A stretch of DNA of 64,000 bases from Desulfoglaeba alkanexedens ALDC (GTDB lineage: Bacteria > Desulfobacterota > Syntrophobacteria > Syntrophobacterales > DSM-9756): positions 124,001 through 188,000 of the forward strand of contig NZ_CP040098.1 of assembly GCF_005377625.1 (NCBI RefSeq). Reading direction: 5' to 3'. Below are positions 4,874 to 18,200 of the stretch, one piece after another (positions within the stretch are counted from its first letter, which is position 1; every line of letters begins with the position of its first letter). Below the pieces are notes generated by a model, which saw nothing but the letters and a program-made list of their open reading frames with translations, was not told the origin of the DNA and ran no database searches. The translations under genes were made by a program, and so were the position numbers.

Positions 4874-4990
4874 CTTAATTGACATCCACAGATTACACAG
4901 ATTTACACAGATGAATAGGTCAAGGAATCAAGGGGTTTGATGGAAAAGCCGATAATCCGTGGCCATCGGTGAAATCTGTGGACAGGGATC
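4874..4990 (+). repeat. ATCCACAGATT-family unit supplying the start of the GxxExxY gene
   Basis: The unit opens with ATCCACAGATTACACAGATT, passes through GATGAATAGGTC and GTTTGATGGAAAAGCC, and ends with GTGGCCATCGGTGAAATCTG. The ends are imperfect inverted repeats (ATCCACAGATT / AAATCTGTGGA). The last GTG of the unit is the start codon of the gene at 4969. Full units also occur at 5400-5520, 5529-5650 and 5651-5765. Confidence 0.8.
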
Positions 4991-5343
4991 AGCGGACATA
5001 CGCCATTATCGGGGCCGCCATGGAGGTGCATCGGGAGTTGGGTCCCGGTTTTCTGGAAGCGGTTTACCAGGCGGCCATGGAGATGGAACTGACGTTGAGG
5101 GACATCCCTTTCCGCTCTCAACCGCAAGTCGCCGTTCAATACAAAGGCCGCGATCTGGACAAGGTGTATCAGCCGGACCTGATATGCTTTGGGGAAATTA
5201 TTGTGGAGCTCAAGGCCCTGTCCAACTTATCCGGGACCGAGGAGGCTCAGATGATCAATTACTTGAAGGCCACAGGGATGAAGGTGGGTTTGTTGATCAA
5301 CTTCGGTGGGCCATCGCTGAAATACAGGCGCTTTGTGTATTAA
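4969..5343 (+). CDS. GxxExxY family protein, PD-(D/E)XK-like (copy A)
   Basis: A 124-residue protein with the defining motif GPGFLEAVY (G-X2-E-X2-Y) after YAIIGAAMEVHRELG. It then has a nuclease-like core QPDLICFGEIIVELKAL (Asp ... Glu-X-Lys) and the C-terminal YLKATGMKVGLLINFG. The family (PDDEXK_3) is widespread and of unknown function. The start codon (GTG 4969, alternative GTG 4978) and the first codons (KSVD) are part of the flanking repeat, and ATCCACAG repeats resume nine bases after the stop. A second, about 90 percent identical copy is at 17673-18038 in opposite orientation. No ribosome-binding site is obvious, so the start is uncertain. Confidence 0.85.
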   Translation: MKSVDRDQRTYAIIGAAMEVHRELGPGFLEAVYQAAMEMELTLRDIPFRSQPQVAVQYKGRDLDKVYQPDLICFGEIIVELKALSNLSGTEEAQMINYLKATGMKVGLLINFGGPSLKYRRFVY

Positions 5344-5351
5344 GGAGTCAT

Positions 5352-5768
5352 CCACAGATCACAGATTACGTAGATTGGCATCCACAGATTACGTAGATTG
5401 GCGTCCACAGATTACACAGATTTACACAGATGAATAGGTCGAGGAATAGGTCGAGGAATCAAAAGTGGTTTGATGGAAAAGCCGATAATCTGTGGCCATC
5501 GGTGAAATCCGTGGACAAAGATCAACAGATTTACATCCACAGATTACACAGATTTACACAGATGAATGGATCGAGGAATAGATGGAGGAATCAAGGGGCT
5601 TGATGGGAAATTTGATAATCTGTGGCCATCGGTGAAATCTGTGGACAAAGATCCACAGATTACACAGATTTACACAGATGAATAGGTCGAGGAATAGGTC
5701 GAGGCATCAAGTGGTTTGATGGAAAAGCCGATAATCTGTGGCCATCGGTGAAATCCGTGGATAGGGGT
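5352..5768 (+). repeat. Tandem array of ATCCACAGATT-family units
   Basis: Short truncated pieces (ATCCACAGATTACGTAGATT twice) are followed by three full units of about 115-130 bases. Each runs from ATCCACAGATTACACAGATT to GAAATCCGTGGACAAAGATC. Each unit ends with the codons GTG AAA TCY GTG GAY that begin the GxxExxY gene, here without the rest of that gene. The last unit abuts the glycosyltransferase gene and gives it an alternative upstream in-frame GTG. Confidence 0.85.
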
Positions 5769-5789
5769 GCGGGGGTGAATCCAGGCAAG

Positions 5790-6989
5790 ATGAAAATTCT
5801 CGTCAATGACCATGCGGGGCATCCGTTCCAGGTGCAGTTGAGCCGGGCATTGGCCGGTCGCGGTCACGAGGTGCGGCATTCTTTTACCGCTCAGTTGCAA
5901 ACCCCGCGGGGGGCGCTGGAGCGAAGGGAAGCCGACCCGACAAATCTGGATTTTTTTCCCATCGTGCTTTCAAGGCCGTTCAGCCGCTACGGGCTGCTGG
6001 AGCGGGCGCGGCAGGAAAACGAGCTTGGGCGCAAGCTCAGCGCCGCGGCAAGGCGGTTCCATCCGGATGTGGTCGTTTCCGCCAATACGCCCCTGGGGGC
6101 GCAGGCCATGCTGGCCAAAGAGTGCCGGAAAATGGGTACCGGGTTCGTGTTCTGGCTGCAGGATCTCTTGGGGGTGGGCATCCGCAACAACCTTGAAAAG
6201 AAGCTGCCGGTCCCCGGGAAGGTGGTGGGGCGGATGTACATCGGCCTGGAGCACCGGCTGCTCCGGCAGAGCGAGGCGGTGGTGGCCATCACCGAGGATT
6301 TTGTGCCCATCTGCCGCAAGGCGGGCGTTGCGCCGGAGCGCATTCACGTGGTGGAAAACTGGGCGCCGCTGGATGAAGTGGGGGTGGTGGAAAAGGAGAA
6401 CCCGTGGTCCAGGGCGCACGGGCTGGACGGGACCTTCAACTTCATCTACTCGGGCACGCTGGGCATGAAGCACAATCCGCGGCTGCTGCTGGACCTGGCC
6501 CGGGCGTTTGCCGGGGAGAAGCAGGTGCGCGTCGTGGTGATCAGCGAGGGTCTGGGTGCGGGGTTCTTGAAGGAGCAAAAGGAAAAGCCGGGGCTGGACA
6601 ACCTGGTGCTGATGGGCTTCCAGCCATTCGAGCAGGTGCCTCTCGTTCAGGGGGCCGCCGACGTGCTGGTGGCTATTTTGGAGCCGGACGCCGGGGTGTT
6701 CGCCGTGCCGTCCAAGGTGCTCACCTACCTGTGCGCCCGGCGGCCGCTGCTGCTGGCGGTGCCGCCGGAAAACCTGGCGGCCCGGATCGTCAGCGGCCAA
6801 GGGGCGGGCATCGTGGCGGCGCCCGGGGACGGGGAGGCTTTCATCGATGGCGCCAGGCGCTTGTGGCGAGATGCCGATCTGCGGCAAAAGATGGCCGCAA
6901 ACGGCCGCCGATATGCCGAAAAGACCTTCGACATCGAGCGCATCGCCGACCGCTTCGAAGGGATCATCCAAGGGGCGAAGAGAAAGTAA
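5790..6989 (+). CDS. Glycosyltransferase family 4 protein (WcaI-like)
   Basis: A predicted 399-residue cytoplasmic or membrane-associated glycosyltransferase of GT-B fold that would add a sugar to the lipid-linked exopolysaccharide unit. The N-terminal Rossmann half starts MKILVNDHAGHPFQ, with ITEDFVPICRKAGV in the middle. The C-terminal half has FIYSGTLGMKHNP and LEPDAGVFAVPSKVLTY, the region that binds the nucleotide sugar in GT4 enzymes. I chose ATG 5790, because an in-frame GTG 14 codons upstream lies wholly inside the ATCCACAGATT repeat and the added residues (KSVDRGAGVNPGK) are repeat-derived. Donor and acceptor are unknown. A 130-base decayed copy of its middle lies at 15059-15193. Confidence 0.88.
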   Translation: MKILVNDHAGHPFQVQLSRALAGRGHEVRHSFTAQLQTPRGALERREADPTNLDFFPIVLSRPFSRYGLLERARQENELGRKLSAAARRFHPDVVVSANTPLGAQAMLAKECRKMGTGFVFWLQDLLGVGIRNNLEKKLPVPGKVVGRMYIGLEHRLLRQSEAVVAITEDFVPICRKAGVAPERIHVVENWAPLDEVGVVEKENPWSRAHGLDGTFNFIYSGTLGMKHNPRLLLDLARAFAGEKQVRVVVISEGLGAGFLKEQKEKPGLDNLVLMGFQPFEQVPLVQGAADVLVAILEPDAGVFAVPSKVLTYLCARRPLLLAVPPENLAARIVSGQGAGIVAAPGDGEAFIDGARRLWRDADLRQKMAANGRRYAEKTFDIERIADRFEGIIQGAKRK

Positions 6990-7216
6990 CCACGAAGGCA
7001 CGAAGGGCACGAGGAAAGAGAGTAAAATTAACAACTTCGTGTACTTCGTGACTTTGTGGTTGTATTCAAAAAACCTGTGAGAGGCATGATCGGGGTGAAG
7101 GTAAAGAAACCACGAAGGCACGAAGGGCACGAGGAAAGAATTTATGACTAAGGTCTTTGTGTACTTCGTGTCTTTGTGGTTTTATATTTGAACCACGAAG
7201 GCACAAAGGGCACGGC
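6989..7216. repeat. AACCACGAAGGCACGAAG palindromic repeats
   Basis: Two units each start with AACCACGAAGGCACGAAGGG and end with a loosely complementary CTTCGTGACTTTGTGGTT (6989-7065 and 7108-7188). A third half unit is at about 7191-7215. The intervening sequence is AT-rich. No gene is seen up to the NYN start. Confidence 0.8.
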
Positions 7217-12040: not shown

Positions 12041-12047
12041 CATATTG

Positions 12048-12476
12048 ATGCAAGATGAGGTTTTGGAGAGGAATAAGAACCTGAATCGGGGGTTTCGGAA
12101 GCTGGAGGTTTGGAGAGAGGCTATTCAGCTTTATGGCTTTGAGAAGAAAGTCCTCGACAGTCTGAAAAAAATCTCGTTCAAGATAAAGGATCAGGTTTTG
12201 GATTCGGTGTTTTCTATCAGTTCCAACATTGCGGAAGGCTACTGCAGGAGGTCGATCAAGGAGTATATTCAGTTCATCAATGTGGCGTTGGGGTCTTGCG
12301 GGGAGAATTATTCGCAATTTTATGCCTTGTTGGAGTCAGGAGAGATCGGCAGGGCGGTTTTTGATGAGTTTGATGAGCGGCACCATCGGATTGAGAACAA
12401 GCTGATGAATCTGGCGAAGGCGCTCTCCAAGAAGATGAAGACGGGGCAGGATTGGGATTCGGATTACAAGGTTTGA
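12048..12476 (+). CDS. Four-helix-bundle (S23/IVP-type) protein
   Basis: A 142-residue all-helical protein with the family pattern NRGFRKLEVWREAIQLYGF, then DQVLDSVFSISSNIAEGYCR (SIxxNIAEG signature) and YIQFINVALGSCGENYSQ. The family takes its name from proteins encoded in 23S rRNA intervening sequences, but most members, like this one, are free-standing and of unknown function. ATG 12048 is preferred over TTG 12045; GGTGAGG lies upstream. The gene sits inside the GGATGATT/TTCG hairpin repeat, which resumes within 15 bases of its stop. Its AT-richer composition differs from the flanking exopolysaccharide genes. Confidence 0.88.
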   Translation: MQDEVLERNKNLNRGFRKLEVWREAIQLYGFEKKVLDSLKKISFKIKDQVLDSVFSISSNIAEGYCRRSIKEYIQFINVALGSCGENYSQFYALLESGEIGRAVFDEFDERHHRIENKLMNLAKALSKKMKTGQDWDSDYKV

Positions 12477-14844: not shown

Positions 14845-15045
14845 GGAACGAGGGGAATTCTTTTTCTCGCGCAGAGGCGCACAGAAAAGCTTTGGGGCGC
14901 TAAAAACCCTTGGCGGCTTGGCGCGAGGAAATCTTTCGTGTCGTCTTGGCGCGAGGAAGGTAGATGAATAGATGGTTCAATCAAGGCGTTTGATGGAAAA
15001 TCCGATCATCTGTGGCCATCGCTGGAATCTGTGGACAGGGATACC
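14845..15045. repeat. CTCGCGC inverted repeat and truncated ATCCACAG-family unit
   Basis: TTCTTTTTCTCGCGCAGAGG faces CTTGGCGGCTTGGCGCGAGG (14853-14930). From about 14960 the 3' part of an ATCCACAG-family unit follows (GTTTGATGGAAAATCC, GTGGCCATCGCTGGAATCTG, GTGGACAGGG). Apart from the weak remnant above, the gap 14507-15197 holds no gene I can recognise. Confidence 0.7.
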
Positions 15046-16169: not shown

Positions 16170-16240
16170 GGCACAACTGCGGGATGGATGATTAGGTACA
16201 TTTAGATCCACAGATTACACAGATTTACACAGATAAGGTC
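16170..16240. repeat. GGATGATTAGG and ATCCACAGATT repeat
   Basis: Short GGATGATTAGG piece and ATCCACAGATTACACAGATT, matching the sequence after copies 1 and 2 of the duplication. It ends just before the VanZ ribosome-binding site. Confidence 0.75.
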
Positions 16241-16262: not shown

Positions 16263-16637
16263 ATGGACACGCTGACCGGTTTATACGGCAGGCACAGTAG
16301 AGTGTTGCAGACGGCAGGCAGGGGCACCCTGGTGGTGCTGCTCGCATGTATGCCATGGGCGATGTTGTCGCCGCAGGCCAGTCCGCCTTCTCACTGGGCC
16401 GGGTGGATGCACGTGGGGGCGGTGGCGATGTTGTCTGTGCTAGCCTATGTGAGCTTTGCGTCTCTGTGGAGCCGGGCCGGAGCCGTGATGTTTGTGTTTG
16501 CATACAGCGGCTTGATGGAGCTGTTGCAGCATTTTTCGGCGGGGCGCACCGGGTCATGGGAAGATCTCGGGATGAACGGGGTTGGGGTATTGATCGGGGT
16601 GGCGTTGGTGAAATGGGCAATGATGCGTGCGGTTTGA
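16263..16637 (+). CDS. VanZ family membrane protein
   Basis: A 124-residue protein with four predicted hydrophobic segments: GTLVVLLACMPWAML, HVGAVAMLSVLAYVSF, AGAVMFVFAYSGLMELLQ and DLGMNGVGVLIGVALV. The SGLMELLQHF and DLGMNGVGVLIG pattern is the VanZ-like core (usually E-LQ ... D---N--G---G). Function is unknown; such proteins occur beside exopolysaccharide and exosortase loci. GGAGGGGGGATT precedes ATG 16263. No exosortase gene is visible here. Confidence 0.85.
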   Translation: MDTLTGLYGRHSRVLQTAGRGTLVVLLACMPWAMLSPQASPPSHWAGWMHVGAVAMLSVLAYVSFASLWSRAGAVMFVFAYSGLMELLQHFSAGRTGSWEDLGMNGVGVLIGVALVKWAMMRAV

Positions 16638-16745
16638 TGGAAAAGCCGATCATCTGTGTCCACCGGTGAAATCTGTGGACAAAGATCAACAGCTTGACAT
16701 CCACAGATTACACAGACCATTCTCTTTCTCGCGCGGAGGCGCAGA
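16632..16745. repeat. Truncated ATCCACAG-family unit followed by CTCGCGC repeat
   Basis: GTTTGATGGAAAAGCCGATC, GTGAAATCTGTGGACAAAG, ATCCACAGATTACACAGA and CTCGCGCGGAGGCGCAG in order. The VanZ stop codon lies within the repeat, and the repeat ends seven bases before the phosphatase start. Confidence 0.8.
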
Positions 16746-16752
16746 GAAGACC

Positions 16753-17544: not shown

Positions 17545-17565
17545 TTGTCAAGATAAATGAGGCAC

Positions 17566-17662
17566 GTCCGCTGATGTTTGTCCACAGCTTTAGATCCACA
17601 GATTACACAGATTACACAGATTATCTGTGTAATCTGTGTAATCTGTGGATGTAAACTTGTGG
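17566..17662. repeat. ATCCACAG palindrome with GxxExxY 5' remnant; left inverted repeat of copy B
   Basis: GTCCGCTGATGTTTGTCCAC (17569-17588) is the complement of the first codons of a lost GxxExxY gene. A perfect palindrome built of ATCCACAGATTACACAGATT and its complement follows (17592-17650). Bases 17640-17662 match the complement of 18035-18057 with one mismatch out of 23. Confidence 0.85.
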
Positions 17663-17672
17663 TCCTGTGAGT

Positions 17673-18038
17673 TTAATACACAAAGCGCCTGTATTGCAGC
17701 GATGGCCTACCGAAGTTGAGCAGCACACCCACCTTCAGCCCTGCGGCCCTCAGGTAATTGATCATTTGAGCCTCCTCGGTGCCGGATAAGCTGGACAGGG
17801 CCTTGATCTCCACAATAATTTCCCCAAAGCATATCAGGTCCGGCTGGTACACCTTATCCAGATCGCGGCCTTTGTATTGAACTGTGACCTGCGGTTGAGA
17901 GCGGAAAGGGATGTCCCTCAACGCCAGTTCCATCTCCATGGCCGCCTGGTAGACCGCTTCCAGAAAACCGGGACCCAACTCCCGATGTACTTCCATGGCA
18001 GCCCCGATAATGGCGTATGTCCGCTGATCTTTGTCCAC
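17673..18038 (-). CDS. GxxExxY family protein, PD-(D/E)XK-like (copy B)
   Basis: A 121-residue counterpart of 4969-5343 with the same GPGFLEAVY, QPDLICFGEIIVEIKAL and VGVLLNFG motifs; differences include YLRAAGLKVG. I place the start at GTG 18038 (VDKDQRTYAI), matching the conserved start region of copy A; an in-frame ATG at 18071 lies in repeat DNA. Its start codon overlaps the right arm and its stop lies 10 bases from the left arm of a 23-base inverted repeat, so ORF plus repeats form a compact unit of about 420 bases. Function unknown. Base substitutions relative to copy A are mostly silent or conservative. Confidence 0.85.
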   Translation of the reverse strand: MDKDQRTYAIIGAAMEVHRELGPGFLEAVYQAAMEMELALRDIPFRSQPQVTVQYKGRDLDKVYQPDLICFGEIIVEIKALSSLSGTEEAQMINYLRAAGLKVGVLLNFGRPSLQYRRFVY

Positions 18039-18200
18039 AAGTTTAGATCCACAGATTACACAGATAGCCACAGATTATTGGATTTGCTTCTTGTTCCCAA
18101 GGTGGAGCTTGGGAACGAGGGGAAAATCCCCCTCCCCTTTAAACTCAATAGCCGCCGGCTCCTTCATCTGTGTAATCTGTGTAATCTGTGGATATAAAAC
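18035..18200. repeat. Right inverted repeat of copy B, plus TTCCCAAG and ATCCACAG pieces
   Basis: 18035-18057 is the right arm (CCACAAGTTTAGATCCACAG). A TTGTTCCCAAGGTGGAGCTT element follows at 18090, and the stretch ends with TGTAATCTGTGTAATCTGTG just after the stop of the Wza-type gene. Confidence 0.8.

What the first reader, a model, noticed from the sequence alone, without database searches (positions are those of the whole stretch)
4874..5768. ATCCACAG-family units look like internally deleted GxxExxY elements that keep the gene's 5' end
Every full unit ends with the codons for (V)KSVD and often DKDQ, identical to the first codons of the GxxExxY gene, then switches into the next ATCCACAGATT. 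This is seen at 5505-5520, 5635-5650, 5748-5765, 15022-15045, 16668-16690 and, inverted, 17569-17588. So the repeats are not generic: they carry the translation start region of this one gene family, as MITEs carry ends of their parent transposon.
Basis: partly seen in the sequence, partly recalled or inferred. Interest (0 to 1): 0.68.

Follow-up and report, generated by a model that had tools for sequence, protein, structure and literature searches.

The report
Nuclease gene with its own repeats
The ATCCACAG repeats are small hairpin-shaped leftovers of a short element built around a DNA-cutting gene (GxxExxY), and across many bacteria genes of this family lie between inverted repeats that change together with the protein, which suggests that this little-known gene family and some of the commonest unexplained intergenic repeats of environmental bacteria form one selfish system.

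Summary
The units are real: about 100-116 bp, with imperfect inverted arms (ATCCACAGATTACACAG... / ...GAAATCTGTGGAC) that fold into hairpins. The KSVD codons are the right arm itself (AAATCTGTGGAC is the reverse complement of GTCCACAGATTT), so they do not by themselves show descent from the gene; two of the six cited junctions lead into unrelated genes. So the unit looks like an internally deleted copy that kept the 3' end, followed by the start of another copy. No single shared breakpoint. Wider result: 60% of 134 GxxExxY genes sit between inverted repeats of this style (5% with swapped flanks). Arm sequence tracks protein sequence while DNA outside the arms does not, and solo repeats co-occur with the gene (P about 1e-7 to 1e-9). 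This resembles REP/RAYT, with a Cas4/RecB-like PD-(D/E)XK nuclease. Mobilisation by the protein is inferred, not shown.

The parts
4884..4982 (+). palindromic unit U1: left arm 4884-4912, right arm about 4955-4982, directly upstream of and overlapping the start of GxxExxY gene 1
   Evidence: hairpin z -4.53
4969..5343 (+). GxxExxY gene 1 (TIGR04256 148 bits, PF13366 PDDEXK_3 141 bits), 124 aa from GTG; the true start may be the second GTG at 4978
5247..5323 (+). 3' part of gene 1 (QMINYLKATGMKVGLLINFGGPSLK codons) that matches the interior of the units
5350..5402 (+). two left-arm fragments directly after gene 1
5403..5516 (+). solo unit U2, followed by GTGGACAAAGATCA
5535..5646 (+). solo unit U3 (best match to the gene 3' end)
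5651..5762 (+). solo unit U4; its right arm is read as the extended start of the glycosyltransferase ORF
14963..15037 (+). unit without left arm (right half only)
16206..16234 (+). left arm only
16631..16684 (+). unit without left arm, read as the extended start of the CpsB/CapC ORF
17594..17650 (+). perfect 27-bp-stem palindrome downstream of gene 2
   Evidence: z -12.8
17560..17593 (-). truncated GxxExxY start (GTGGACAAACATCAGCGGACGTGCC) after the palindrome
17673..18071 (-). GxxExxY gene 2 (TIGR04256 143 bits; 89% identical to gene 1); the ORF reads through the arm, likely start at GTG of VDKDQRTYA
18047..18193 (-). inverted arm pair upstream of gene 2

Best explanation
GxxExxY genes are the coding part of a widespread short element: a single small PD-(D/E)XK nuclease gene of about 360 bp between inverted arms of roughly 20-55 bp. 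Each arm is made of two or three degenerate repeats of 8-10 nt of the type CCACnGAnn. The ATCCACAG units of the window are the gene-less, hairpin-forming members of one such family. The unit itself looks like a copy that lost most of the gene by an internal deletion (left arm, then the gene's 3' end, then right arm), followed by the start codons of another copy. Inferred mechanism: the nuclease recognises its own arms, probably as hairpins or as a protein-bound inverted pair, cuts or trims them, and so spreads both the gene element and the solo units in trans, much as RAYT proteins are proposed to spread REPs. Shown here: flanking arms, protein-arm co-variation, co-occurrence of solo arms with the gene, three dispersed gene-bearing copies with different upstream flanks in one genome (L134), a conserved active site and a Cas4/RecB-like fold. 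Inferred: the cutting, the strand-transfer chemistry and the trans mobilisation.
For: Inverted repeats flank GxxExxY genes: 29 of 40 exceed the 99th percentile of 382 control ORFs in the same loci; 60% of 134 loci score 28 or more against 5% with swapped flanks. Arm similarity follows protein identity: Spearman 0.31, 0 of 1,000 permutations, leaving out same-genome and >=90% pairs, while flanks just outside the arms do not follow it (-0.01); unlike GxxExxY genes in one genome do not share arms. Among 297 genomes of the phylum, CCACRGAT-type repeats (2 or more copies) occur in 24 genomes with the gene and 3 without, P 2e-9; CCACGAAG-type 21 and 2, P 1e-8. Units: hairpins; interior matches the gene 3' end, with U1, U3 and the copies at 747072 and 775793 beating all 2,022 other window segments and all 1,000 shuffles; codons 13-20 after the right arm. 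Dispersal: L134 holds three copies of a ~480-bp block, 96-97% identical, with unlike upstream flanks. Protein: D62, E72-x-K74 and Q86-xxx-Y90 conserved in 90-96% of 134 proteins; AlphaFold2 pLDDT 95, best PDB match 4ic1, Z 9.1, rmsd 3.6 over 98 residues.
Against: No empty site or target duplication was found, so insertion itself is not shown. About 40% of loci have no clear arm pair by this measure. The 3'-end match of the interior is gapped: weaker in U2 (1 segment, 3 shuffles as good), U4 (1 and 2) and 758171 (5 and 6), and not significant in 714502 and 806159 over the whole interior. Two genomes with 6 or more CCACRGAT-type repeats lack the gene at the threshold used (G205, G227). Co-variation could reflect joint inheritance of gene and arms without any recognition. 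Four-helix-bundle genes show a parallel flank pattern, so arms may be a general host or transposition feature rather than made by GxxExxY.
Confidence: 0.68

Rival explanations
1. GxxExxY is a passenger: arms and solo units are moved by another, unidentified machinery (for example a reverse transcriptase or host recombination acting on hairpins), and the gene merely rides between two arms.
For: A 125-residue nuclease alone would be an unusual transposase; four-helix-bundle genes (TIGR02436) are also flanked by inverted short-repeat arrays, of a different 7-nt style; some genomes hold repeats without the gene.
Against: Arm sequence follows GxxExxY sequence across genera while outside flanks do not, and repeat presence follows GxxExxY within both four-helix-bundle-positive and -negative genomes.
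Confidence: 0.2
2. One reading: the units are MITEs that kept the 5' end of the GxxExxY gene, with one shared breakpoint after codon 5-7.
For: KSVD(K)(D)(Q) follows in most full units; distal units even carry codons 13-20.
Against: KSVD is the inverted arm; breakpoints differ between copies; the gene piece inside the arms resembles the 3' end.
Confidence: 0.08
3. Arms are ordinary terminators or mRNA-stabilising hairpins around a horizontally moving gene, and similarity to the solo repeats is functional convergence.
For: Arms lie close to start and stop codons and form hairpins.
Against: Arms share one sequence style (repeats of CCACnGA type), pair upstream with downstream, and track protein sequence; control genes do not show this.
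Confidence: 0.04

Closest known systems
REP sequences / REPINs and RAYT (TnpA-REP) tyrosine transposases (PMC2817692)
   Same: Gene flanked by inverted palindromic repeats; solo doublets; gene and repeat coevolve; repeat number follows presence of the gene; repeats cluster near the gene; 3' ends of rayt genes captured between REPs, as seen in the units here.
   Different: RAYT is an HUH tyrosine enzyme of the IS200/IS605 line; GxxExxY is a PD-(D/E)XK nuclease. Arms here are repeats of 8-10 nt, and the families are found across many phyla.
MITEs of DNA transposons
   Same: Short, gene-less, terminal inverted arms, internal deletion of a gene-bearing parent.
   Different: No transposase of a known IS family; no target-site duplication found; arms are imperfect and sit about 12-26 bp inside the repeated block in L134.
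Cas4 / RecB-type PD-(D/E)XK exonucleases (e.g. 4ic1, lambda exonuclease, MGME1)
   Same: Fold and conserved residues D, E-x-K, Q-xxx-Y.
   Different: Only 124 residues; no conserved cysteines among the conserved columns; linked to its own repeats.
23S rRNA intervening sequences with S23/four-helix-bundle gene (PMC4990558)
   Same: Small gene inside complementary ends, called a selfish element.
   Different: Different protein family; located in rRNA; removed by RNase III.

Membership tests
GxxExxY / PF13366 PD-(D/E)XK family (the gene) | Score above curated cut-off and conserved active-site residues | tested here: met
   TIGR04256 148.5 and 143 bits (cut-off 35), PF13366 140.9 bits; D62, E72, K74 conserved in 93-96% of 134 proteins and present in gene 1
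MITE (the unit) | Short, gene-less, inverted terminal arms | tested here: met
MITE (the unit) | Derived from a gene-bearing parent by internal deletion | tested here: inconclusive
   interior matches gene 3' end significantly in four of nine copies, near the top in three, but with gaps and not in 714502 and 806159; no intact parent with both outer arms seen in this genome
MITE (the unit) | Target-site duplication / mobility by the parent transposase | not tested
   no empty sites compared
REP/RAYT system | Gene flanked by two inverted palindromic repeats | tested here: met
   (60% of loci)
REP/RAYT system | Gene and repeat coevolve; repeat number follows the gene | tested here: met
REP/RAYT system | Protein is an IS200/IS605-type tyrosine (HUH) enzyme, Pfam Transposase_17 | tested here: not met
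   only PF13366 hit; restriction-endonuclease-like fold. It works like the system but is not a member
Cas4 family | Conserved Fe-S cysteines | tested here: not met
   no cysteine among columns with 85% or more identity in 134 proteins
Cas4 family | CRISPR neighbourhood | not tested
   neighbourhoods were not searched for CRISPR arrays or cas genes

The most novel reading that the evidence does not exclude
GxxExxY proteins are the enzymes of a new class of short mobile elements: a lone Cas4/RecB-like nuclease spreads its own gene and many solo hairpin repeats in trans, which would explain a large share of the CCACGAAGGnnACGAAGG / ATCCACAGATTACACAGATT / CGCAGAGnCGCAGAG repeats seen throughout environmental genomes.
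Probability: 0.45. Interest if true: 0.85.

Novelty: new variant of a known kind. Interest (0 to 1): 0.7.

Why it matters
It gives a testable role to a very common protein family without known function (105 of 297 sampled genomes of this phylum carry it), and an origin to repeats that are common in metagenome-assembled genomes and are easily misread as N-terminal extensions of genes. If the nuclease moves its repeats, it would be a REP-like system with wholly different chemistry from RAYT.

Tried and rejected
Shared breakpoint after codon 5-7: breakpoints differ. KSVD as proof of gene origin: it is the inverted arm. Arm co-variation as evidence for RNA pairing: L059 and L073 differ concordantly on both arms, but the three copies in L134 do not, so not claimed. 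Distal tail ...GACAACTACCCTGACACAGGGG as part of the element: it occurs alone elsewhere. Rfam, PADLOC, PHROGs and phmmer against PDB sequences: nothing useful. First pattern search was mis-specified (forced 1-3 bases between the two boxes) and replaced. Literature: GxxExxY appears in two held papers; the one read mentions it in passing only; no held paper was found that links PDDEXK_3, TIGR02436 or GxxExxY to repeats, though subscription papers are not held.

Full report
What is there. The window is G000:C1:124001-188000 of a 3.37-Mb genome held as one contig. It holds two GxxExxY genes, at 4969-5343 (+) and 17673-18071 (-), 89% identical; a third copy in the genome lies at 1,773,185. ATCCACAGATT occurs 25 times in the window with up to one mismatch, 0.69 expected. 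Full units (5403-5516, 5535-5646, 5651-5762, and 4884-4982 in front of gene 1) have a left arm ATCCACAGATTACACAGATTTACACAGAT and a right arm ...GGCCATCGGTGAAATCTGTGGAC, which pair as an imperfect hairpin (z = -4.5; the palindrome at 17594-17650, z = -12.8).

The KSVD codons. AAATCTGTGGAC is the reverse complement of GTCCACAGATTT, the outer end of the left arm. Reading VKSVD at the end of a unit is therefore a consequence of its inverted arms. The same reading extends a glycosyltransferase ORF (5748) and a CpsB/CapC ORF (16627), which are unrelated genes. Of 35 left arms in the fetched stretches, 20 have a right arm. The KSVD argument therefore fails as stated.

Gene sequence beyond the arms. 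Units at 298 kb, 714-806 kb and 2.09 Mb continue past the right arm as GTGGACAAAGACATGATCGGGGCCGCCGTGGCGG or close variants. The last 23 bases match codons 13-20 of gene 1 at 20 of 23 positions. This is the only place in the whole window, both strands, with 19 or more matches, and 0 of 20,000 shuffles reached it. The first 32 bases of the 60-base tail occur essentially only behind units, while its second half occurs alone elsewhere. The gap relative to the gene is 15 nt and in frame. So these units do carry the start region of the gene, though outside the palindrome.

Gene sequence inside the arms. The interior GGCCATCG(G/C)TGAAAT matches the 3' coding end of gene 1 (15 of 15 in the copy at 806159, 14 of 15 in most). 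Elsewhere in the window it appears only in units and in the two genes. With gaps the match covers most of the interior and corresponds to QMINYLKATGMKVGLLINFGGPSLK. For U1, U3 and the copies at 747072 and 775793 no other window segment (2,022) and no shuffle (1,000) scores as high. For U2, U4 and 758171 it ranks near the top. For 714502 and 806159 the whole-interior score is not significant. I read the unit as left arm, gene 3' end, right arm, then the start of another copy. Capture of the 3' end of rayt genes between REPs has been reported for RAYT/REP (PMC2817692).

The general pattern. Flanks of GxxExxY genes from diverse phyla were fetched. In the first 40 testable loci, 29 have an upstream/downstream inverted repeat above the 99th percentile of 382 other ORFs in the same loci. 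In 134 loci, 60% score 28 or more against 5% when flanks are swapped between loci. The arms differ in sequence but share a style: two or three degenerate repeats such as CCACGAAG, CCACAGAG, CCACGGAT, CGCAAAGG, ACAGGAT, with internal period 8-10. Locus L153, from the same order as the window, is the cleanest case: TTTTAAACCACGAAGAGCACGAAGGACACGAAG|ATG...gene...TAA|CTCCTTCGTGCTCTTCGTGTCCTTCGTGGTTTAAAA, with a gene-less 102-bp copy 1.6 kb further on (z = -14.7). In L134 three copies of a ~480-bp block, 96-97% identical, have unrelated upstream flanks; two of them share further downstream sequence.

Gene and repeat go together. In 74 loci with clear arms, arm similarity rises with protein identity (0.26 below 40% identity, 0.44 at 60-70%, 0.67 at 70-90%) while 40 nt just outside the arms stay at background. 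The rank correlation excluding same-genome and near-identical pairs is 0.31 (0 of 1,000 permutations), and dissimilar GxxExxY genes of one genome do not share arms (first version). Across 297 genomes, two repeat types are strongly concentrated in genomes with the gene (P 1e-7 to 1e-9), and this holds within genomes with and without four-helix-bundle genes.

The protein. The model is confident (pLDDT 95). The best solved match is SSO0001 (4ic1; Z 9.1, rmsd 3.6, 98 residues; Foldseek E 3e-4), known to me as a Cas4 protein, followed by other restriction-endonuclease-like folds at lower Z, which the tool warns may be only a common arrangement. D62, E72-x-K74, Q86 and Y90 are conserved in 90% or more of 134 proteins, the motif set of RecB/Cas4 nucleases by established knowledge of that family. 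A published RT survey notes a gene reported as GxxExxY where another tool called cas4 (PMC8934634).

How it probably works. Shown: arms, pairing, co-variation, co-occurrence, dispersed copies. Inferred: the nuclease recognises cognate arms and cuts or trims them, and repair or replication restores the break using another copy, so that gene-bearing and gene-less copies spread. It works like RAYT/REP; by enzyme class it is not a member. The main rival is that the gene is a passenger of another machinery; the parallel pattern of four-helix-bundle genes with 7-nt arms keeps that open.

Limits. No empty sites, target duplications or experiments. Swapped-flank and ORF controls handle chance, but joint inheritance of gene and arms would also give co-variation. 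Genomes with the G prefix are unnamed, and many are draft assemblies. The literature held is open-access only.

Noticed in passing
window 12045-12476; loci L177-L206: Four-helix-bundle genes (TIGR02436) are flanked by inverted arrays of 7-nt repeats (TAGTGAC, CGTAAAT, GTTAGCA, GGTCGGG) in about half of 32 loci (arm period 7 in the 14 arms examined): a parallel but different element style. The window copy has direct GGATGATTTGGATGATTAGGATG repeats instead.
   Followed up: partly
window 873, 3359, 10657, 11880: Several left-arm-only copies are fused to a second repeat type (TTTCTCGCGCAGAGGCGCAGAGG), giving hybrid repeats of two arm families.
   Followed up: no
G000:C1:714000-806000: About 17 ATCCACAG left arms cluster in 92 kb that hold no detectable GxxExxY gene; several units share an 80-nt head (CGCGCTATCCTTGGACCATG...) and a tail, as a larger composite repeat.
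   Followed up: partly
window 5748-5790 and 16627-16752: Annotation trap: long ORFs of a glycosyltransferase and a CpsB/CapC gene extend upstream through the repeat; their real starts are probably the ATGs at about 5791 and 16753.
   Followed up: partly
G000:C1:1773185-1773526: Third GxxExxY gene has a different arm type (AACCACGGATGAACACGGATCAACACAGATT), matched by a 92%-identical protein with the same arms in another genome (L160).
   Followed up: yes
window 6990-7210: CCACGAAGGCACGAAGGGCACGAGG repeats: the arm type of other GxxExxY families, although none of this genome's GxxExxY genes carries it.
   Followed up: partly
distal units, e.g. G000:C1:775793: Units contain a short ORF (ATGGAAAATCC..ATCTGTGGCCATCGGTGA) whose stop overlaps the GTG of the KSVD reading (GTGA), which could couple translation.
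   Followed up: no
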